64,000 nucleotides of DNA from Fibrobacter sp. UWR2 (GTDB lineage Bacteria > Fibrobacterota > Fibrobacteria > Fibrobacterales > Fibrobacteraceae): assembly GCF_002210285.1 (NCBI RefSeq), contig NZ_MWQE01000004.1, positions 124,001 to 188,000 on the forward strand. Direction: 5' to 3'. The translations under genes and the position numbers were made by a program. The notes beneath the pieces were generated by a model. The model was not told the origin of the DNA. It did no database searches and saw only the letters and a program-made list of their open reading frames with translations. Below, in pieces: positions 37,305 through 53,401 of the stretch (the first letter of the stretch is position 1; each line of letters begins with the position of its first letter).

Positions 37305-38135
37305 ATGAGTTTTATCAAGTTTTGCGCAGCATCGGCTACGCTGATTTTCCTGTGTTCTTGCGATGGCAATGACGTTTCCCTGGCATTCAACACCCAGAGT
37401 GCCCCCGTTCAAAAGTATTTCCTGGAATCATCCATCGATGCCATGCTCCCGAGCGATTCCGGAGTCACCGTCCCCGAGGCGATGGAGACCCACCTCAAGG
37501 TGCAGGCGACACTTTCCGAACTGGTGGCCTACGACAATGGCTCCGGCCGTTTCGAGATGAAGATTGATTCGGTCGACTACAAGAGCGATAAACGCACGGT
37601 CGAGGATTACCTCTATATCGAGAAGTATCTCCTGACGCAGCACTTCCAGTACAAGATGGCTCCTGACGGCTCCGTGAGCGAACCTGCTGTGGAAGATGTC
37701 GCCCTGCAGCCGGGCTCCGAGGAACTCAACCTGCTCAAGTTGTTCATGAAGGTGCAACCGATTCTTCCGGGCAACCCGGTGAAGGTGGGCGAGACCTGGG
37801 AACGGTCGGTCGAGATTCCCGAGAGCAACAAGACGACTACGGTCTACAAGTCCTTCACCCTCGAGGAGGTCTACCTGCACGATGGTGTCCAGATGGCGAA
37901 AATCGGGATGAACGTCAAGTATCGCGAGGTGGCGGACACTACCGTGAACGTGCAGATGGAAAGCAAGGGCTTTGTTGTCGGTACGGGTTCTATCCTGTTC
38001 GATATGACACATGGCGTTATCTCGTCGGTGTCGCTTGACCTTTCGGGCCATGTCGACGTGAATGACCTTGTTGCGGGGGCCGTGATACCCGATATGCACG
38101 TGCTCCAGAAAATCAAGCTTCGGAGTGAGTTCTGA
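37305..38135 (+). CDS. Hypothetical lipoprotein
   Basis: 276 residues. Lipobox LCSC (Cys19) after a short signal peptide. Mature part is strand-rich, with VTVPEAMETHLKVQATLSELVAY, PGNPVKVGETWERSVEIPESN and DMTHGVISSVSLDLSGHVDV, a pattern seen in DUF6263-like surface lipoproteins (weak match). First gene of the close-packed series that continues through the stator-like genes; the next ATG overlaps its stop (TGATG). Confidence 0.75.
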   Translation: MSFIKFCAASATLIFLCSCDGNDVSLAFNTQSAPVQKYFLESSIDAMLPSDSGVTVPEAMETHLKVQATLSELVAYDNGSGRFEMKIDSVDYKSDKRTVEDYLYIEKYLLTQHFQYKMAPDGSVSEPAVEDVALQPGSEELNLLKLFMKVQPILPGNPVKVGETWERSVEIPESNKTTTVYKSFTLEEVYLHDGVQMAKIGMNVKYREVADTTVNVQMESKGFVVGTGSILFDMTHGVISSVSLDLSGHVDVNDLVAGAVIPDMHVLQKIKLRSEF

Positions 38136-38854
38136 TGTTCCCGCGCGGTTCTAGACAAGTATTCTGCTCGGCGCTGCTGCTTGCGGTTGTCTCCCTTGCG
38201 AGTGAGATGCCGTTCCCTCATCCTGAGAACGGAAACATCCGCCTTACGGAGAAGGATAGCCCCTACATCCTTGAACAGGGGGTCGTGGTTACCTCTACCG
38301 ATACGCTTTATGTTGAACCGGGCGTTGTCGTGCACATGGGTGAATATGCGAAACTAACCCTCCGCGGGTCGGTCCATATCCTGGGTACGGAAGCCAAGCC
38401 TGTCGTGTTCCGCAGCGTCGATTCCAGCGGAAGCTGGAACGGAATTCATTTCGTGTCTACGAACCGTCCCTTCGAGGTAAAGAACTTTGTCGTCCAGAAT
38501 GCGTTTCGCAATACGGTGTTCCGGTCCCGCGGAATTTTCGAGAATGTGAAGTTCGTGAACAACTACTACGGCCTCTGGGTCGACGATGTCCCCGAGGTAT
38601 TCCTTGCACGCTGTGATTTCGTACGTAACCGCTTTGCGCTTTCCGTACGTGCGGGCAAGGTCATTTCTGCCGATTCCAAGATTACCGAGAATGTCTACGG
38701 GCTGTATCTTGAAGCGGGCGGCAACTATAATGGCGATCTCTCTGCCATCAAGGGAAACCTGGAGTCGGATGTCCGCAAGGAATCCGACGAACTGGCGGGT
38801 GCAGGCAAGCGCGTGAGCCGGAGTGTCTGGCAGCGCATAGAGACTGGATTCTAA
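38135..38854 (+). CDS. Exported right-handed beta-helix protein
   Basis: 239 residues. Signal peptide about 1-23 (VFCSALLLAVVSLAS). The body is a series of short parallel strands: DTLYVEPGVVVHMGEYAKLTLRGSVHILG, KPVVFRSVD, NGIHFVS, FVVQNAFRNTVFRSRGIFENVKFVNNYYGLWV and SKITENVYGLYLEAGG, typical of pectate-lyase-like beta-helices. No catalytic residues identified. Coupled to the lipoprotein upstream and nine bases from the next gene. Confidence 0.75.
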   Translation: MFPRGSRQVFCSALLLAVVSLASEMPFPHPENGNIRLTEKDSPYILEQGVVVTSTDTLYVEPGVVVHMGEYAKLTLRGSVHILGTEAKPVVFRSVDSSGSWNGIHFVSTNRPFEVKNFVVQNAFRNTVFRSRGIFENVKFVNNYYGLWVDDVPEVFLARCDFVRNRFALSVRAGKVISADSKITENVYGLYLEAGGNYNGDLSAIKGNLESDVRKESDELAGAGKRVSRSVWQRIETGF

Positions 38855-38863
38855 GAGGTTCAT

Positions 38864-39772
38864 GTGGAAGAAGCTTTCCGTCGGTCCATAAGAAAGATGA
38901 CTGGTGCGAGCATTCGCCTGAATGCCTGCCCGAACAGGTCGTCCATGGTGGCGGATTTATCCCAATCCATGATGGTCACCTGGTCCATTGCTCTTTTTGA
39001 ACATCTCGACGCATTGCTCAACAACCTCGATCCTTCAGTCGGAAATTCCGAACAGATTTCTTACAGCGAGACGGCATGGAAACTTGCCGACGCAAGTTTC
39101 CCGCAGATTATTGCCGATGCGAACAAGCTTTACGACGAGTTTCGCGCCAAGTGGATGCAGCGCTTTTCGACCGACGAGGTCTTGCGCCTGCTGCTTGAAG
39201 GCGGTGACTTTATCCATCACGATGAGGAGAAGGGCTGGGCCCTTACGGTCAAGAACAACAAGCAGGATATAAGCGCGTTCTATTCGGCGACAATCCATTT
39301 GCTGGTAAGCGATGCTGAACCGCTGTTTGTGCGCATGCATGGCCGCGTAATGCAGTTGCAAGAAAAACTCTGCAAGTACTGGCATGGCGAAAGTGCCGTC
39401 GATGCGGTCTCTAAACTTTTGCCCTGCCTGGAATCGTCGTTGCGTGAAAAGGAAAACGCAATGGTGGTTTCCTTGCGCAGTTCGTTGAATTCCCTTGCCA
39501 AGAAGCGCTTTGCCGCAGCGTTCAATACAAAGGCTCCGGCCCGCTATTACCGCACGGCGGCTTCGTGCGCCAGGAATGTTGGCCGTTTTTGGAACCCGCA
39601 TTACGCCTATGAAAACGGATTCCTCGCTTTTACGGATGACTTCTGTGATTACGCTCGTGAATTGACGCTCCATGTGATTGAATGGTATCACAGTAAGTGG
39701 TCTGTTTTCCTCCGCGGGTTTTCCCGTGGACAGTTGAACTTGTTTGAAACAACGGCCTCTGCCGAGGCCTAA
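38864..39772 (+). CDS. Helical cytosolic protein, DUF3348-like (stator-like cluster)
   Basis: 302 residues from GTG 38864, with AGAGG five bases upstream; an overlapping ATG at 38862 is in a frame that stops after nine codons. No signal peptide or membrane span. The sequence is largely helical, with FSTDEVLRLLLEGGDFI, the segment AVDAVSKLLPCLESSLREKENAM and LNSLAKKRFAAAF. That last block resembles the DUF3348 pattern I remember (a ...VDAVM...ERERALL...LLxxxF... helix), and position as the gene before a MotA-like gene agrees. Function unknown. Confidence 0.7.
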   Translation: MEEAFRRSIRKMTGASIRLNACPNRSSMVADLSQSMMVTWSIALFEHLDALLNNLDPSVGNSEQISYSETAWKLADASFPQIIADANKLYDEFRAKWMQRFSTDEVLRLLLEGGDFIHHDEEKGWALTVKNNKQDISAFYSATIHLLVSDAEPLFVRMHGRVMQLQEKLCKYWHGESAVDAVSKLLPCLESSLREKENAMVVSLRSSLNSLAKKRFAAAFNTKAPARYYRTAASCARNVGRFWNPHYAYENGFLAFTDDFCDYARELTLHVIEWYHSKWSVFLRGFSRGQLNLFETTASAEA

Positions 39773-39786
39773 CATTAAGGAAGAAA

Positions 39787-41430
39787 ATGAAGAACGCATA
39801 CAACCTGATTCTCGTTCTCTCTGTCGTCGGTCTTGCCGTGTTGGTGGCTGGCGCCTCCTACTTCGGTGCACCGCTTTTTGGCTGGGTCATCATGGTGGCG
39901 ATTTTCGCTGTCTTCATTGTTGACCAGTTCAAGCTTCTTGCAAGCCTCAAGCGCATCGGCGAAGAAGAAAGCCTTATTGAATCGTGCGAGAGCCGCCACA
40001 CGTTCTCGGTCTCAGGTGACGGAATTGTGGCGAAGCGCTTGAATCAGGCGCGCGAGATGCTTTCGCAGGGACTCAGGCTCGATTCCCCGATTGCATTTGA
40101 GGTCCTTTCGAACGGTTCTACTGTGGCTGTCCCCCGCAGTTCCGGCGGCACGGTGATCCTCCTTGGCCTTATGGGTACGTTCTTCGGTCTTATGTATTCC
40201 GTCGCCACGGCCGGTGTGGCTATCGACAATTCCTCGACGCAGGGTACGCTCGATACTATCCAGGTGCTGTTCGGCAACATGAAGGGTATTTTCGGTACGA
40301 GCCTTTGCGGCCTGTTCGCAGCCCTCGTGCTCAATGCTTCCCGTGGGATCTTCCTTGCACGCCGTGACGCCTTTATCGTGCGTCTCGATGCGCTTACCCT
40401 GAGCATGCAGGGCGAATCTGCTGGCGAGAACGAGAAGAGCAGGGACGATCTTGCTCGCCTGTTCGATTCCGTCGAGGAAAATCTCCGCAAGGTTACCGGT
40501 TCCGTGCAGGAATCGCTCAATGCGGTTGTCTCTGAACTTAATGCAAAACTTTTGAGCACTCTCGACAACATGAACGGTTCCCTCGGTAAACTTGGCGATA
40601 GTATCGGCGGTGGCATTTCGGATGCCTTCAACCCGGTGCGAAAGGAAATTACCTCGTTGGCCGATTCCGTGAGCGCAATTCCTGGCAAGCTTGATGAAAA
40701 ACTGAACGGTATTTCTTCTACGTTGAAGGAAGGCCTTTCGGGTGTCGCCGCTGCGACAGAAAAGTCCATGGAGGGTGCGTCGAAGGATGTCGCCGTTGCC
40801 GTTTCCGAACAGGTGAAACAGTCCGGCGAACAGTGGAAGGCTTTCATGGACCGCCTGTCTGCCGAAACGAGCGCAAACGTGGAATCCCAGAAAGAGGGCC
40901 TCGAGACCCTCAAGACGGTGGCGCTCCAGGTGGCGGAGAAGGCTCAGGCGGGTTCTGCGGAACTTTCGCAGTCCGTTGCCGAAAAGCTCTCTACACTTTC
41001 TTCCGATATCCTCTCTGCATTCCAGAAACTTTCCGATACGTCTGCCGTGCTGCTCGAGGCCCAGAAGGCGCTTACCGAAAGCATCGACAACCGTGTCGTG
41101 AAGGAGAAGGAAGCGACGGACGCTCTCGGTGGCAACATCGTGCAGACCGCAGAACTCATGCGCGTGAACCAGAGCGAACTCAGCGCGAACCTCGAAATGC
41201 TCCGCAGCGCTCTCGAGACCATTCTCGAAAAACTCAGTGGCGATACTTCCGAGCACGAAGACGAAGAGAATTTTGTCGAACGCCTCAACCAGTCTCTCGA
41301 AGCGTTCCACGAACGCGCAAGCGAAGTGCTTATGGAAAATGCGGTCAAGACGCAGGAAATCCTTTTGGAAGTTCTCGAACAGACACAGCGTGCCGCGGCA
41401 CAGCAGTCGTCTCCGAAGGCAGAGGGCTAG
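39787..41430 (+). CDS. MotA/TolQ/ExbB-like channel protein with long helical tail (DUF802-like)
   Basis: 547 residues. Four spans: about 7-22, 31-49, 121-142 (GGTVILLGLMGTFFGLMYSVA) and 167-187 (IFGTSLCGLFAALVLNASRG). TM3/TM4 have the glycine-rich pattern of MotA/TolQ/ExbB proton channels. From about 210 to the end the chain is nearly all helix and polar, without a globular domain; it contains repeats around SLNAVVSELNAKL, DSVSAIPGKLDEKL and VEQVKQSGEQ-like units, recalling the long tail of ZorA and the DUF802 repeats. SD AAGGAAG precedes the ATG. It is expected to form a pentamer with the next gene's protein. Confidence 0.8.
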   Translation: MKNAYNLILVLSVVGLAVLVAGASYFGAPLFGWVIMVAIFAVFIVDQFKLLASLKRIGEEESLIESCESRHTFSVSGDGIVAKRLNQAREMLSQGLRLDSPIAFEVLSNGSTVAVPRSSGGTVILLGLMGTFFGLMYSVATAGVAIDNSSTQGTLDTIQVLFGNMKGIFGTSLCGLFAALVLNASRGIFLARRDAFIVRLDALTLSMQGESAGENEKSRDDLARLFDSVEENLRKVTGSVQESLNAVVSELNAKLLSTLDNMNGSLGKLGDSIGGGISDAFNPVRKEITSLADSVSAIPGKLDEKLNGISSTLKEGLSGVAAATEKSMEGASKDVAVAVSEQVKQSGEQWKAFMDRLSAETSANVESQKEGLETLKTVALQVAEKAQAGSAELSQSVAEKLSTLSSDILSAFQKLSDTSAVLLEAQKALTESIDNRVVKEKEATDALGGNIVQTAELMRVNQSELSANLEMLRSALETILEKLSGDTSEHEDEENFVERLNQSLEAFHERASEVLMENAVKTQEILLEVLEQTQRAAAQQSSPKAEG

Positions 41431-41433
41431 CCT

Positions 41434-42072
41434 ATGCGTTTGCGTCGCGAAGAAGGCAGCAATCCCTGGATGGCGTATACCGACCTTGGCATAGCCCTGG
41501 TATCGCTGTTCATATTGGCGTTTGTCGCCATGGCAACACTTAAGGAGCAGAAGGCCGAAGACCTTACGCGTACCGAAGAAGAAGTGCTCAGCTGCCAGGA
41601 AGAAATGCGCAAGATTGCCGCCGAGCGCAATGCGCTTTTGGCGAAGAGCCTGCAGACTTCTATCGAGGCGGGCCTTATCGCGCTTGAAGACGGGAAAATT
41701 CAGATTCAGGCTTCGTTCCTGTTCCCGACCAATGGCGCGAATCTCACACAGGAAGGTATCGGCGTCATCAAGGGTATCAGCAAGGGCCTGCTCGATGCGC
41801 TCGATACTGGCGATGTAATTATGGTGAGCGGCTTTACCGACGACATCCCGTTCAGCGGCTCTACCACCTACACGAACTGGAACCTTTCTACCGAACGCGC
41901 CGTGAACGTGGTGAAGACGCTTATTAAGGAAGGGTTCCCTTCTGACCGCCTGTTTGCTGCGGGCTTCGGCGAATTCCAGCCCAAGTACCCCAACGACACC
42001 GAGGAACACCGCCGCCTCAATCGTCGCGTGGAAATCGGTGTGACACCGTTACGCCTGGGGAGTACCCGCTAA
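41434..42072 (+). CDS. MotB/ZorB-like stator protein with OmpA peptidoglycan-binding domain
   Basis: 212 residues. Short cytosolic start, one membrane span about 14-34 (AYTDLGIALVSLFILAFVAMA) with the conserved channel aspartate (Asp17, in WMAYTDL), then a helical linker and an OmpA-like domain (about 85-207) with FLFPTNGANLTQEG, VSGFTDD, NWNLSTERAVNVVKTL and GFGEFQPKYPNDTEEHRRLNRRVEI. This is the arrangement of MotB, TolR-OmpA fusions and ZorB. It begins three bases after the MotA-like gene. Confidence 0.88.
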   Translation: MRLRREEGSNPWMAYTDLGIALVSLFILAFVAMATLKEQKAEDLTRTEEEVLSCQEEMRKIAAERNALLAKSLQTSIEAGLIALEDGKIQIQASFLFPTNGANLTQEGIGVIKGISKGLLDALDTGDVIMVSGFTDDIPFSGSTTYTNWNLSTERAVNVVKTLIKEGFPSDRLFAAGFGEFQPKYPNDTEEHRRLNRRVEIGVTPLRLGSTR

Positions 42073-42728
42073 TGCAGGAACGCATAGAATCCGTACGCCG
42101 CACGATAGATTCCATACGCAAGTCTGGAAGTCTTCCGCATTGGCGCATGGTCTATGCCGATATGCTTCTGGAACGAGCCGAAGACTATATCGCGATTGAC
42201 AGGATTCCCGAAGCGGGAATGGTACTGGATAAGTTGACCCGGTGGACGGAAACCCACATGCCTCCCGCAGCCGCAGATACGGCAAGCGAGGCTGCCCCCA
42301 TCGTGTTCTGGAATGCAGACCTGCTGAAAGGCATTGTCGAACAGGTCCGCAGCACGCTAGCCAGGAAGAAGATGCTTGTGCCTGCTACGGAACGGGATGC
42401 CATTTTGCGCCGTCTGGACTTGGTCGAAAAGTGGATCGAGGAATCGAATATCCTCGAGGCGCACCAGGAACTGCTTGCGCTTCGCAGTGCCCTCATTGCC
42501 CGCCTACGCCGCTCGTACAGGGCTCGTCTGGCTTCTAGCGACTACCGTTCGGGGACATTCGTACAGCCCGCGGGTACGCTTGTGGGCCCGTACAATGCCC
42601 GCCATACGCTCGAGGAAACTTTTCAGGTGGTGGGCGAACGAGACCCGATTTGGGTCGAAGATTTTCTTGATATCTATAACGATTTGTTCCGCATCGTCGA
42701 AAGACTTGCTCCACAAGAGAAAAAATAG
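42072..42728 (+). CDS. DUF2894-like helical protein (stator-like cluster)
   Basis: 218 residues, ATG overlapping the previous stop (TAATG). No signal or membrane span. Helical repeats with LRRLDLVEKWIEESNILEAHQELLALRSALIARLRRSYRARL. The C-terminal block GPYNARHTLEETFQVVG...DPIWVEDFLDIYNDLF matches the layout GPLN-S-...-SPxYLxxFLxYVDxL that I remember from DUF2894. It closes the four-gene stator-like set. Cytosolic partner of unknown role. Confidence 0.7.
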   Translation: MQERIESVRRTIDSIRKSGSLPHWRMVYADMLLERAEDYIAIDRIPEAGMVLDKLTRWTETHMPPAAADTASEAAPIVFWNADLLKGIVEQVRSTLARKKMLVPATERDAILRRLDLVEKWIEESNILEAHQELLALRSALIARLRRSYRARLASSDYRSGTFVQPAGTLVGPYNARHTLEETFQVVGERDPIWVEDFLDIYNDLFRIVERLAPQEKK

Positions 42729-42757: not shown

Positions 42758-44071
42758 ATGAAAAAAATTATGTTTTTCTATGTGTTGGCCGCACTCGCCT
42801 TGTCTCTTGTGGGCTGTGGTGATTCCGGTTTTGACACGGGCAAAGATTCTTCGTTGATAGTCCACATAGAGGACGGAGTATTCGTCGACCAGCGTGATGG
42901 CGAAAGGTATCGCGTAATCAAGGTCGGCAGTGATGTTTGGCTGGCCGAGAACTTGCGCTATAAGGATAGCACGGAATCGCCGAATCTGGAGGGCAATATG
43001 TGGTGCCCTGACGATGACCCCGCGAAATGCGCCAAGTTTGGCCCGCTCTATTCCTGGACTGCGGCAAGGAATGTTTCTTCGGACTATTCGCAAAGGACCT
43101 TGGGGCGTAACATATCCCAGTTGCGCGGAATCTGCCCGGAAGGATTTCGCCTGCCGACGAATAGCGATTGGGTGTATTTGGCGATGGTTGCGGATAAGTT
43201 CTCCGGGGAGTGGGCTGTTGCCGAAATCCTTAAGGCGCCGGAAGGCTGGGAAAGCTGGAGTTCTGACATCCTTATCTATGATTCCACCTGGTACAGTTTC
43301 GATGCGCTTCCTGCCGGAAGGCGTAACATGGAAGGCGGCTTCCTGGAAAGCGGGCTGTTCGCGTTCTTCTGGACTGCCGACGAGATAGACAACGCAACGG
43401 CTTCGGGCTGGACTCTCCGCGATGATAATGACTTGTTGGATTCGGGAAGGTATTACAAGGAACACGGAATGTCGATTCGCTGCCTCGTCGAAGATCCGGA
43501 ATCGGTCGAATGGAAGGGTGAAACGAACAGAGGGGGATTCCAGTTCCATTATTCGACATTGGAATACGAAGGCCAGGAATACAAGGTTCTGGATTTCGGT
43601 GGCGTGACCTGGATGGCCGAAAACCTGAATGTTGAATCGGAAAATAGCCGCTGCTATGCAGATAAGGAAGAAAACTGCGAGAAGTACGGACGTCTCTATT
43701 CTAGGGAAGATGCCTCGAAGGTTTGCCCGGAAGGCTGGAGATTGCCTACTAATGCCGAATGGAACAATCTGTTCTATGCTGCCGGCTTGAGTGCGACAAG
43801 ATTGATGTCCACGGAAGACTGGCACGGAGGAAACGGAACGGATGATATTGGCTTTACGGCTCTCCCGGCAGGCATATATGATAATGGCTCGTTCTCTGAT
43901 TTGACAATCTCTACCTATTTCTGGGAAGCGGACAAGGGGAATGTTTGCTCGGCGGCACAAACCGGAGTGAGCATGAATTACTACAGTACGGGTCTTACAT
44001 CAAATACGTTCTCTTCCAACACCTACGTATCTGTGCGTTGTGTCAAGTTGGGGTCGTGCAATGGACTATAG
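42758..44071 (+). CDS. Lipoprotein with two FISUMP domains
   Basis: 437 residues. Lipobox LVGC (Cys20). Two FISUMP repeats: about 45-245 (DQRDGERYRVIKVGSDVWLAENLRY ... ICPEGFRLPTNSDWVYL ... SIRCLVED) and about 260-432 (EYEGQEYKVLDFGGVTWMAENLNVE ... VCPEGWRLPTNAEWNNL ... TDDIGFTALPAGIYD ... SVRCVKLG). Domain two is close to the canonical form, while domain one is longer. Likely surface-exposed; ligand unknown. Starts 29 bases after the stator-like set, with a possible TATATTC promoter box in between. Confidence 0.88.
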   Translation: MKKIMFFYVLAALALSLVGCGDSGFDTGKDSSLIVHIEDGVFVDQRDGERYRVIKVGSDVWLAENLRYKDSTESPNLEGNMWCPDDDPAKCAKFGPLYSWTAARNVSSDYSQRTLGRNISQLRGICPEGFRLPTNSDWVYLAMVADKFSGEWAVAEILKAPEGWESWSSDILIYDSTWYSFDALPAGRRNMEGGFLESGLFAFFWTADEIDNATASGWTLRDDNDLLDSGRYYKEHGMSIRCLVEDPESVEWKGETNRGGFQFHYSTLEYEGQEYKVLDFGGVTWMAENLNVESENSRCYADKEENCEKYGRLYSREDASKVCPEGWRLPTNAEWNNLFYAAGLSATRLMSTEDWHGGNGTDDIGFTALPAGIYDNGSFSDLTISTYFWEADKGNVCSAAQTGVSMNYYSTGLTSNTFSSNTYVSVRCVKLGSCNGL

Positions 44072-50302: not shown

Positions 50303-53300
50303 ATGAAAAGAGTAGTAACAGGGCTTGCGCTTGCACTCGCCGTCCAGGCTTTTGCAGACCACCCGCAGACAATCAACAAGACAGGCTTTGTTGGTGTCAA
50401 TAAGACTCAGTCTGCCCAATCCTTGGGACATTCTAAATTGTCTTTCTATGGCTTGATGGACGCAACGACGGATGTCAACAACATTGCTCCGGAAGGCGTT
50501 ACCGAAAGCTATATCGGCCCCTACCAGGAAGGTGTTGTCGGATTGCCTCCGGGAACCGTCATGCGTAAGGGCATGGTCGAGGACTATATCGGCTTAGGCG
50601 CCCAGGTCGGTTTCGGTATCGGCATCTGGCATTACTTCGATATCGGTGTCGGCATTCCTGTTTACTATGACAAGTTTACCGTTAACAACACGGGCTGCCC
50701 GTACAACGGTGTCGTTACCTACGATCCCGGTGATGGAATTCAGCCGGCTACGGCTTGCCAGCCGGGTCAGGTCGCTGGTACCAATATCGGCTACATCGGC
50801 AACATCAAGGCCGACTTGAAGATCCGTCTCCCGCTCCCCGACGAACAGCCGGTGGACATCGCCGTTTTCGGTGAAGGCAACTTCGGTACGGCGAATACCG
50901 CGAAGGATGGTATCTGGATCCGCGAACCGGAATTCATCAACAAGAACGACAAGGCCGCGCAGGCATTCGGCGTGCGTAGCACCATTGCCAAGGTTGGCGG
51001 TGCGTTGACCCTCGATTTCGACAAGATCGACGCCATCCCGCTCGTTATCCATGGTAACGGCGGCTATGTCTATTCTACCGACGCGAACTACCTCTCCTAT
51101 CCGTATGCGTCTGGAGCCCTTGAAATCTATTTCATGGACTTCCTCTCGATCTTTGCGGAATACTACATGATTTTCCAGATGGATGAGTTCAGCGATGGAA
51201 CTAAGCTCGATGTCAAGGACTTGACCGGTGCGGTCGTGTTCCACCTGCCGATCGGTCTTGATATCCACCTGGGCGGCTCCTACTCGCTGGGTAAAGGCTA
51301 CGATGCCGCCGATCCTTCGAATTTCACGTCTGTCAACGCCATGGAAAACGACCAGCGCATCCTTACCTACAGGACGACGGTCAATCCCAAGTACAAGGTC
51401 TATGGCGGTATCACCTGGAGCGGCTTCTTGCTGGCTCAGGACCGCGATGGCGATGGCGTGACGGATAATGAAGATAACTGCCCGGATGACTTTGGTCATC
51501 GTCTGAACCAGGGGTGCCCGTTGGGTAATCCGGACGTCGACGAAGACGGCGTTTGCGATGCCTGGGTTTCTGAGAAGGGCTTTGAAAATGAATTTAGGGA
51601 TGTCTGCGAAGGCATTGACGCTTGCCCGAACGAACAGGGTGAAGGCGAAGATGGCTGCCCGCTCGAAGATCCGGACCCGGATGGCGACCATGTCTGCGAT
51701 GCCTGGGTCTCCAAGAAGAAACTCCAGAAGAAGTTCAAGGAAGTCTGCGAAGGCATAGATAGCTGCCCGACTGAAAAGGGTACCGTTGCCAATAAGGGCT
51801 GCCCGGAAGATAATCCGGACCCGGATGGCGATGGCATGTGCTCTCCGTGGGTGACCGACAAGAACAAGCTCGGTGACTATGCGAACGTCTGTAAGGGTTA
51901 CGACATGTGTCCGGGTGAAGCGGGTACCAAGGCCAACAAGGGCTGCCCGTGGGATGATCCGGATAGCGATGGTGACGGCCTCTGCGACGAATGGGTGACC
52001 CAGAAGAAGATGGGCTACTACTTCGAAAAGGCTGCCGAAGACGAAAAGATCAAGAACGAATGGTTCATTGAAAAGACCTGTAAGGGTATCGACAAGTGCC
52101 CGACCGAATTCGGCCCGGCCAACAACGAAGGCTGCCCGCTCGGCGATCCGGATACCGACAAGGACGGCATCTGTGACGAATGGGTGACCCAGAAGAACAT
52201 GCTCGACCAGTACGACGGCATCTGCTCCGGTATCGACAAGTGCCCGACTGAACCTGGTGAAGCCTGGGCTAACGGCTGCCCGATGGACAACCCGGATATT
52301 GACGGCGACAGCCTCTGCGCCTCTTGGGTGACCGAGAAGAAGATGCAGGATCAGTTCAAGGATGTCTGCCACGGCGTCGACAAGTGCCCGACTGAAAATG
52401 GTCCTGAATGGAACAAGGGCTGCCCGGCTGAAAATCCGGACTCCGACGGCGACGGCGTCTGCGATGCATGGGTCTCCAAGCAGAAGATGTTCGAACAGTT
52501 CAAGGATGTATGTAAGGGCGTTGACCGTTGCCCGGATGAACCGGGTCCGGATTGGAACAAGGGTTGCCCGTCTGACGAGAACCCGGATACTGACGGCGAC
52601 AGTCTCTGCGATCCGTGGGTAAGCAAGCAGAAGCTGGCTGACCAGTTCAAGGATGTCTGTCACGGTATCGACAAGTGCCCGGACGAAGCTGGTCCTGAAT
52701 GGAGCAAGGGTTGCCCGGCTGAAAATCCGGACAGCGACGGCGACGGTCTCTGCGACGCCTGGGTTGGCAAGCAGAAGATGTTCGACCAGTTCAAGGATGT
52801 ATGTAAGGGCACAGACCGTTGCCCGGACGAAGCCGGTCCTGAATGGAACAAGGGCTGCCCGATGGACGACGATCCGGATGCCGATAAGGATGGTGTCTGC
52901 TCTGAATGGGTATCTACCAAGAAGCTCCTCAAGCAGTTCGAAGGCGTCTGCACTGGCCTCGACCGTTGCCCGGATGTTGCGGGTGATGACGGCCACGGCT
53001 GCCCGAAGAAGGCTGTCGAGAAGCTCACCGGCGTGACCTTCAAGCCGGGTAAGGCAACGCTCGAATCCAACGCCAAGAACATCCTCAAGGCTGTTGCGAA
53101 GAAGCTGAACGAAGATGATAGCTACAAGGAACTGAAGATTGTTATCCAGGGCCACACCGACAACAAGGGTAAGGACAAGACCAACCAGAAGCTCTCTGAA
53201 AAGCGTGCTCAGGAAGTCATGAAGACCCTCATCAAGTTCGGCGTGAAGAAGAACCGCATCAAGGCCGTGGGTCTCGGTGCAAGCTGCCCGGTCGACGACA

Positions 53301-53401
53301 ACAGCACCGAAGACGGTCGCGAAATGAACCGCCGTATCGAAATGCACTTCGCTACGCCGGAGAACGACGGAACCAAGTGCGAATCCGAATTCCAGCAGTA
53401 A
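50303..53401 (+). CDS. Large OmpA-family surface protein with extended thrombospondin-type-3-like repeats
   Basis: 1032 residues. Signal peptide 1-18 (TGLALALAVQAFA). Residues about 40-370 form a predicted outer-membrane barrel. One canonical TSP3 unit (DRDGDGVTDNEDNCPDD) is followed by ten repeats of about 48 residues, each NPDxDGDGxCDxWV, a helical insert of about 15 residues (KKMxDQFKDVC) and a GIDKCPTExGPxxNKGCP end. Aspartates bind calcium and Cys pairs form disulfides in TSP3 units; the insert in each unit is unusual. The C-terminus (about 905-1020) is an OmpA peptidoglycan-binding domain (VVIQGHTDNKGKDKTNQKLSEKRA). Related Fibrobacter proteins are implicated in adhesion to cellulose; that role is inferred here. 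Confidence 0.93.
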   Translation: MKRVVTGLALALAVQAFADHPQTINKTGFVGVNKTQSAQSLGHSKLSFYGLMDATTDVNNIAPEGVTESYIGPYQEGVVGLPPGTVMRKGMVEDYIGLGAQVGFGIGIWHYFDIGVGIPVYYDKFTVNNTGCPYNGVVTYDPGDGIQPATACQPGQVAGTNIGYIGNIKADLKIRLPLPDEQPVDIAVFGEGNFGTANTAKDGIWIREPEFINKNDKAAQAFGVRSTIAKVGGALTLDFDKIDAIPLVIHGNGGYVYSTDANYLSYPYASGALEIYFMDFLSIFAEYYMIFQMDEFSDGTKLDVKDLTGAVVFHLPIGLDIHLGGSYSLGKGYDAADPSNFTSVNAMENDQRILTYRTTVNPKYKVYGGITWSGFLLAQDRDGDGVTDNEDNCPDDFGHRLNQGCPLGNPDVDEDGVCDAWVSEKGFENEFRDVCEGIDACPNEQGEGEDGCPLEDPDPDGDHVCDAWVSKKKLQKKFKEVCEGIDSCPTEKGTVANKGCPEDNPDPDGDGMCSPWVTDKNKLGDYANVCKGYDMCPGEAGTKANKGCPWDDPDSDGDGLCDEWVTQKKMGYYFEKAAEDEKIKNEWFIEKTCKGIDKCPTEFGPANNEGCPLGDPDTDKDGICDEWVTQKNMLDQYDGICSGIDKCPTEPGEAWANGCPMDNPDIDGDSLCASWVTEKKMQDQFKDVCHGVDKCPTENGPEWNKGCPAENPDSDGDGVCDAWVSKQKMFEQFKDVCKGVDRCPDEPGPDWNKGCPSDENPDTDGDSLCDPWVSKQKLADQFKDVCHGIDKCPDEAGPEWSKGCPAENPDSDGDGLCDAWVGKQKMFDQFKDVCKGTDRCPDEAGPEWNKGCPMDDDPDADKDGVCSEWVSTKKLLKQFEGVCTGLDRCPDVAGDDGHGCPKKAVEKLTGVTFKPGKATLESNAKNILKAVAKKLNEDDSYKELKIVIQGHTDNKGKDKTNQKLSEKRAQEVMKTLIKFGVKKNRIKAVGLGASCPVDDNSTEDGREMNRRIEMHFATPENDGTKCESEFQQ
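51527..53008 (+). repeat. Ten tandem coding repeats of about 144 bp
   Basis: Repeat units of about 48 codons inside the large OmpA gene, from NPDVDEDG to GDDGHGCP. Later units (7 to 10) are nearly identical in the DNA, with long shared stretches such as CAGTTCAAGGATGT and GCCCGGCTGAAAATCC, which suggests recent duplication or conversion. Unit 5 has a 15-residue insertion (AAEDEKIKNEWFIEK). Confidence 0.85.

What the first reader, a model, noticed from the sequence alone, without database searches (positions are those of the whole stretch)
38864..42728. Stator-like four-gene set (DUF3348-like, MotA/TolQ-like with long tail, MotB/OmpA-like, DUF2894-like): candidate undescribed complex
Seen: four overlapping or nearly touching genes. 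The second has four spans and a long helical tail, the third one span with the MotB-type WMAYTDL aspartate plus an OmpA domain, and the first and fourth are helical cytosolic proteins. Known: MotAB, TolQR, ExbBD and ZorAB are proton-driven rotary complexes; the Proteobacterial neighbourhood DUF3348-DUF802-OmpA-DUF2894 has, as far as I know, no assigned function. Inference: this set is the Fibrobacter version, because the C-terminal GPYN...WVEDFLDIYNDL block of the last gene and the VDAVSKLL...KEN block of the first follow the DUF2894 and DUF3348 patterns I remember. It may couple ion flow to an envelope or cytosolic effector.
Basis: partly seen in the sequence, partly recalled or inferred. Interest (0 to 1): 0.78.

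Follow-up and report, generated by a model that had tools for sequence, protein, structure and literature searches.

The report
Zorya-III-like motor operon, sometimes motorless
A four-gene Fibrobacter operon encodes a distant relative of the Zorya type III ion-driven anti-phage motor, but here it is a stable core gene set, and in some relatives the outer genes and the tip of the motor's tail persist without any motor.

Summary
In detail: four tightly packed genes at 38864-42728. Gene 3 is a ZorB-type MotB/OmpA protein (PADLOC ZorB3, E 4.7e-41). Gene 2 is a four-span ZorA/TolQ/ExbB-type protein with a helical tail. Genes 1 and 4 are soluble helical proteins.

Genes 1 and 4 match no DUF3348/DUF2894 model (Pfam, PADLOC). 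Profile-profile comparison plus identical gene order links gene 4 to DUF2894 (E 3e-4) and, weakly, gene 1 to DUF3348 (E 0.01; 0/150 shuffles).

Two things differ from a typical defence system. The set is a syntenic core locus: all genes in 44/44 near-complete Fibrobacter genomes, in housekeeping surroundings. In 26 other genomes of the class (genera g15/g17; families f3-f5), gene 1 and/or gene 4 occur without the ZorA membrane domain or ZorB anywhere; wherever resolved, they flank a 1-2-span protein carrying the tail tip. Gene 1, tail tip and gene 4 are thus the conserved core, and the motor is dispensable. I read the window locus as an ion-driven 5:2 motor whose tail carries genes 1 and 4. 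Defence versus housekeeping is unresolved.

The parts
38864..39772 (+). gene 1 (p1), 302 aa soluble helical protein; DUF3348-like (Zorya III flank)
   Evidence: ORF; no Pfam/PADLOC match; hhalign vs DUF3348 E 0.01, 0/150 column shuffles; in 117/168 Fibrobacterota genomes
39787..41430 (+). gene 2 (p2), 547 aa ZorA/TolQ/ExbB-type subunit with long tail
   Evidence: hhalign vs DUF802/ZorA3 E 1.1e-7; AF2 model, top Foldseek hits all ExbB/TolQ/ZorA; PADLOC ZorA3 8.8e-7, mostly tail
39805..39921 (+). TM1-TM2 hairpin of p2 (residues 7-45); two hydrophobic segments also kept in f3 motorless homologues
   Evidence: hydropathy; N-terminal profile f1 vs f3 E 1e-3 (suggestive only)
40150..40359 (+). TM3-loop-TM4 of p2 (residues 122-191) with ILLGLMGTFFGLM and GIFGTS motifs; absent from motorless relatives
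40360..41427 (+). cytosolic helical tail of p2 (residues 192-547), variable length among species
   Evidence: secondary structure; lengths 490-632 aa in Fibrobacter
41107..41406 (+). tail-tip block of p2 (about residues 441-540), conserved in motor-bearing and motorless forms
   Evidence: hhalign motor vs motorless tips E 3e-28, 37% identity over 98 columns
41434..42072 (+). gene 3 (p3), 212 aa ZorB/MotB-type subunit with OmpA peptidoglycan-binding domain
   Evidence: PADLOC ZorB3 4.7e-41; OmpA 3.4e-15; 33-37% identity to beta-proteobacterial Zorya III ZorB
41482..41484 (+). Asp17 codon of p3, predicted ion-carrying aspartate; invariant in 27 aligned homologues
41719..42024 (+). OmpA domain of p3 (residues 96-197)
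42072..42728 (+). gene 4 (p4), 218 aa soluble helical protein; DUF2894-like (Zorya III flank)
   Evidence: hhalign vs DUF2894 E 3.3e-4, 0/150 shuffles; no Pfam/PADLOC match
42585..42686 (+). GPYN...DPIWVEDFLDIYNDL block of p4 (residues 172-205); Gly172 and Asn175 invariant also in DUF2894 proteins
   Evidence: alignment A10
37305..38135 (+). upstream DUF6263-like lipoprotein gene, probable operon partner
   Evidence: Pfam 5.3e-7; next to the operon in Fibrobacter and other motor-bearing genera, weakly upstream in four f3 motorless loci
38135..38854 (+). upstream beta-helix secreted protein gene, probable operon partner
   Evidence: Beta_helix 1.2e-4, below Pfam cut-off; synteny

Best explanation
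A divergent, vertically inherited Zorya-type-III-like complex. Five copies of p2 around a p3 dimer form an ion-driven rotary stator. p3 anchors to peptidoglycan through its OmpA domain, and ions pass via Asp17 of p3 and the p2 TM3/TM4 Ser/Thr motifs. The p2 tails bundle into a rod reaching into the cytosol. p1 and p4 sit on the conserved tail tip as a cytosolic head, and rotation transmits an envelope signal or torque to that head. Shown here: sequence family of p2 and p3, operon structure, class-wide core status, and persistence of p1 + tail tip + p4 without the motor. Inferred: 5:2 stoichiometry and ion flow (by homology to solved ZorAB, PMC11890865), p1/p4 docking on the tip, and the output. 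The output could be resident anti-phage defence or a housekeeping envelope function; I lean slightly to a constitutive role because the locus behaves as a core gene set.
For: ZorB3 E 4.7e-41. Best plasmid-borne matches of p3 lie in annotated DUF3348-DUF802-OmpA-DUF2894 operons with the same order. p2 TM3-TM4 vs ZorA3 E 1.1e-7; fold matches ExbB/TolQ/ZorA, Foldseek probability about 1.00 although no E-value is below 0.001. p4 vs DUF2894 E 3e-4 and p1 vs DUF3348 E 0.01, each above all 150 shuffles, cross-controls ordinary. Core: all four genes in 44/44 Fibrobacter genomes at least 90% complete; synteny with tadA/DUF6263/beta-helix genes. Motor domain and ZorB absent genome-wide in g15/g17/f3/f4/f5 while p1 and/or p4 persist with a 1-2-span p2 and the tail tip between them in the resolved loci.
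Against: No standard profile places p1/p4 in DUF3348/DUF2894. The p2 tip vs DUF802 tip is not significant (E 0.025). No complex was modelled; AF2 models are low confidence (p1 pLDDT 61, p2 59). No physical link of p1/p4 to the tip was tested.
Confidence: 0.75

Rival explanations
1. It is simply Fibrobacter's resident Zorya type III anti-phage system: p1 and p4 sense infection or act as effectors and ZorAB gates them.
For: Same order as the type III system whose Stenotrophomonas representative lowered plaquing in E. coli; ZorB3-like p3.
Against: Universal, syntenic and single-copy as a rule in Fibrobacter, in housekeeping surroundings by gene-start reading. Defence systems are usually patchy and mobile. 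p1/p4 match no ZorF/ZorG model. Motorless relatives keep p1 and p4.
Confidence: 0.4
2. A housekeeping envelope machine (peptidoglycan-linked force or signal, Tol-Pal- or gliding-motor-like) working with the upstream lipoprotein and beta-helix proteins; any phage protection is secondary.
For: Core status; upstream lipoprotein and beta-helix genes conserved beside it; strong conservation of p1 and p3 (about 80-98% identity in the genus).
Against: No functional data; relatives without the motor evidently live without ion drive; proteobacterial type III loci inspected lack these two genes.
Confidence: 0.45
3. A TolQR/ExbBD- or MotAB-type system unrelated to Zorya; genes 1 and 4 are fortuitous neighbours.
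For: By single-sequence search the top solved relatives of p3 are MotB/PomB, and the p2 model also matches ExbB/TolQ.
Against: ZorB3 is the best PADLOC family and PRK09040 (an uncharacterised family of the same length) the best NCBIfam family, over nearly the whole of p3; genes 1 and 4 stay adjacent across families, even without the motor; profile links of p1/p4.
Confidence: 0.08

Closest known systems
Zorya type III (ZorA/ZorB flanked by DUF3348 and DUF2894 proteins; PMC8565338)
   Same: Gene order and orientation, ZorA-type 4-span protein with long tail, ZorB with OmpA domain, GP-N block of the last gene
   Different: p1/p4 beyond Pfam/PADLOC detection; core and syntenic in Fibrobacter; upstream lipoprotein and beta-helix genes; motorless relatives exist
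Zorya types I and II ZorAB (PDB 8qyd, 8vvn; PMC11890865)
   Same: ZorA/ZorB fold class, long cytosolic tail, peptidoglycan-binding ZorB
   Different: No ZorC/ZorD/ZorE nearby; p3 only 27% identical to a type I ZorB
TolQR / ExbBD / MotAB
   Same: Rotary stator fold, MotB-type aspartate
   Different: Long helical tail, tail-tip block, p1/p4 partners

Membership tests
Zorya type III | ZorB of type III | tested here: met
   PADLOC ZorB3 E 4.7e-41, far ahead of ZorB1 6e-20 and ZorB2 2.5e-4
Zorya type III | ZorA of type III | tested here: met
   hhalign to DUF802/ZorA3 alignment E 1.1e-7 over TM3-TM4; ZorA-like fold. The direct PADLOC hit is weak and mostly tail
Zorya type III | DUF3348 protein encoded beside zorAB | tested here: inconclusive
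   No Pfam/PADLOC hit; profile-profile E 0.01, 0/150 shuffles; correct position
Zorya type III | DUF2894 protein encoded beside zorAB | tested here: inconclusive
   No Pfam/PADLOC hit; profile-profile E 3e-4, score 33.5 vs shuffle maximum 17.6; GP-N motif shared
Zorya type III | Order DUF3348 - zorA - zorB - DUF2894, same strand | tested here: met
   (positions of p1 and p4; their family identity is judged in the rows above)
Zorya type III | Anti-phage activity | not testable with these tools
   Needs a phage assay; shown only for a Stenotrophomonas system
Zorya type III | Patchy or mobile distribution typical of defence systems (typical, not defining) | tested here: not met
   44/44 Fibrobacter genomes at least 90% complete carry it; syntenic
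Rotary 5:2 stator | Pentamer:dimer channel | not testable with these tools
   No multimer prediction available
Rotary 5:2 stator | MotB-type aspartate in the N-terminal span region | tested here: met
   Asp17 invariant in 27 homologues

The most novel reading that the evidence does not exclude
The gene 1 - tail tip - gene 4 module is the functional core of this whole lineage and can work as a membrane-anchored complex with no ion motor. The ZorAB motor is an optional drive whose presence changed at least twice in Fibrobacterota. This would recast Zorya type III flanking proteins as a tail-tip effector/sensor head with an older, possibly housekeeping role.
Probability: 0.4. Interest if true: 0.75.

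Novelty: new variant of a known kind. Interest (0 to 1): 0.55.

Why it matters
How Zorya motors pass ion-driven rotation to their partner proteins is open, and type III partners have no assigned activity. Natural motorless versions that keep p1, the tail tip and p4 point to the tip as the docking site and give a small complex to test directly. A core, vertically inherited Zorya-like locus in cellulose-degrading rumen bacteria also asks whether some so-called defence machines are housekeeping machines.

Tried and rejected
Direct Pfam, NCBIfam and PADLOC searches for p1/p4: nothing real. The controls work: Azoarcus proteins hit their models at 1e-71 to 1e-83. Profile comparison on Fibrobacter-only alignments failed for p1 (Neff 1.3; E 0.6), so diverse genera were added. 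AF2 of p1 gave pLDDT 61, so no fold search was made. DUF2894 homologues in viral contigs: none confirmed. Proteobacterial core-versus-accessory survey: not possible, since a search centre must be a genome handle. Hendecad (11-residue) periodicity of tail-length differences: p 0.015 before correcting for 13 periods tried, not relied on. Coincidental neighbours (no functional link): rejected, because the genes stay together across families and without the motor.

Full report
What is there. Four + strand genes, 38864-42728, almost touching. p1 (302 aa) and p4 (218 aa) have no span; p2 (547 aa) has four spans and a long helical tail; p3 (212 aa) has one span, WMAYTDL with Asp17, and an OmpA domain. 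The window lies in genome G000; its close named relatives are Fibrobacter, so I take it to be a Fibrobacter.

Known relatives. p3 best matches PADLOC ZorB3 (4.7e-41), ahead of ZorB1 and ZorB2. On public plasmids and chromids its best matches (33-37% identity) are OmpA proteins; the four annotated loci read are operons of DUF3348, DUF802, OmpA, DUF2894, in the window's order. This arrangement is Zorya type III, named in 2021, and a Stenotrophomonas copy protected E. coli from phages (PMC8565338). The papers call the DUF3348 protein ZorF and the DUF2894 protein ZorG; PADLOC-DB labels them the other way round, so I use p1 and p4. p2 aligns with the DUF802/ZorA3 family over TM3-TM4 (E 1.1e-7). The predicted p2 model, though of low confidence, has ExbB, TolQ and ZorA chains as its first 45 PDB matches (best E 1.3e-3).

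Are p1 and p4 the DUF3348 and DUF2894 partners? No Pfam or PADLOC model recognises them, in the window or in any Fibrobacterota homologue tested; the number of DUF hits in the mixed alignments (six each) equals the number of proteobacterial controls in them. With alignments covering several families, profile-profile comparison gives p4-DUF2894 E 3e-4 (score 33.5; 150 column shuffles reach at most 17.6) and p1-DUF3348 E 0.01 (25.4; shuffles at most 21.3). The crossed pairs and reversed alignments are ordinary. The GP-N motif of p4 is invariant across both sets. With the identical gene order I take homology as likely for p4 and plausible for p1; neither is proved.

Distribution. All 48 Fibrobacter loci show the same neighbourhood wherever the contig reaches (tadA, DUF6263 lipoprotein, beta-helix protein, p1-p4). 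In the phylum search all 44 Fibrobacter genomes at least 90% complete carry p1, the p2 membrane domain, p3 and p4. Five Fibrobacter genomes lack them; these are 62-88% complete. The surrounding genes look like ordinary housekeeping genes by the starts of their translations (my reading, not searched).

Motorless relatives. p1 or p4 are found in nearly all genomes of the class (p1 in 117, p4 in 114 of 168 phylum genomes). The ZorA membrane domain (E below 1e-40) and the ZorB N-terminus occur only in Fibrobacter, related genera g16 and g18-g24, and family f2. In genera g15/g17 and families f3, f4 and f5 (26 genomes, several at least 95% complete) neither was found anywhere in the genome; a few have marginal hits to the ZorA domain (E 3e-5 to 0.007) that I read as ordinary TolQ/ExbB proteins. 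Of these loci 24 were read: in most, p1 and p4 flank a protein with one span (g15/g17, f5) or one to two (f3) followed by helical tail or linker sequence and the tail tip; in f4 the middle gene was not cleanly resolved and one g17 locus is cut. The tip matches that of motor-bearing p2 at E 3e-28, 37% identity. A p1 tree places g15/g17 as one clade within the Fibrobacter family and f3/f4 apart, with a best count of two changes of motor state (one change is not excluded by the bootstrap); it cannot tell loss from gain, and long branches are involved. In four f3 loci a weak DUF6263 homologue still lies just upstream of p1.

Mechanism. By homology to solved ZorAB (5:2 complex, tail bundled from five ZorA C-termini, ion flow, tail and peptidoglycan binding all needed; PMC11890865), p2 and p3 should form an ion-driven rotary stator with a cytosolic rod. 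The constant unit across the class is p1 + tip + p4, so I infer p1 and p4 dock on the tip. What the head does is not known. Resident defence (0.4) and housekeeping (0.45) are both open.

Verdict. The sequence observation is confirmed. The claim of an undescribed complex is only partly right: it is a divergent Zorya-III-like system. The new parts are its core status and the motorless forms.

Noticed in passing
L146-L152, L163-L165 (genera g15/g17); L153-L162, L168-L170 (families f3, f4, f5): p1-p4 loci without ZorA membrane domain or ZorB; the middle protein keeps one or two spans plus the tail tip, in g17 often with PKIE repeats.
   Followed up: yes
window 37305-38854: DUF6263-like lipoprotein and beta-helix genes directly upstream of p1, conserved beside it in motor-bearing Fibrobacteraceae; possible operon partners.
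   Followed up: partly
PADLOC-DB 2.0.0 vs PMC8565338: ZorF/ZorG labels are swapped: PADLOC names DUF3348 models ZorG3 and DUF2894 models ZorF3, the papers the reverse.
   Followed up: no
p2 tail, Fibrobacter loci L008-L055: Tail length varies (p2 490-632 aa) with a weak preference for multiples of 11 residues (p 0.015 uncorrected).
   Followed up: partly
window 42758-44071: Lipoprotein-like protein with Fib_succ_major domains (E 3e-47) just downstream; not conserved at this place in all relatives.
   Followed up: no
G000, C2, C3, C4, C12: Seven PF01618 (MotA/ExbB) proteins elsewhere in this genome; p2 itself is not recognised by PF01618.
   Followed up: no
window 50303-53401: 1032-aa secreted protein with a C-terminal OmpA domain (matched at E 1e-9 by p3).
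   Followed up: no
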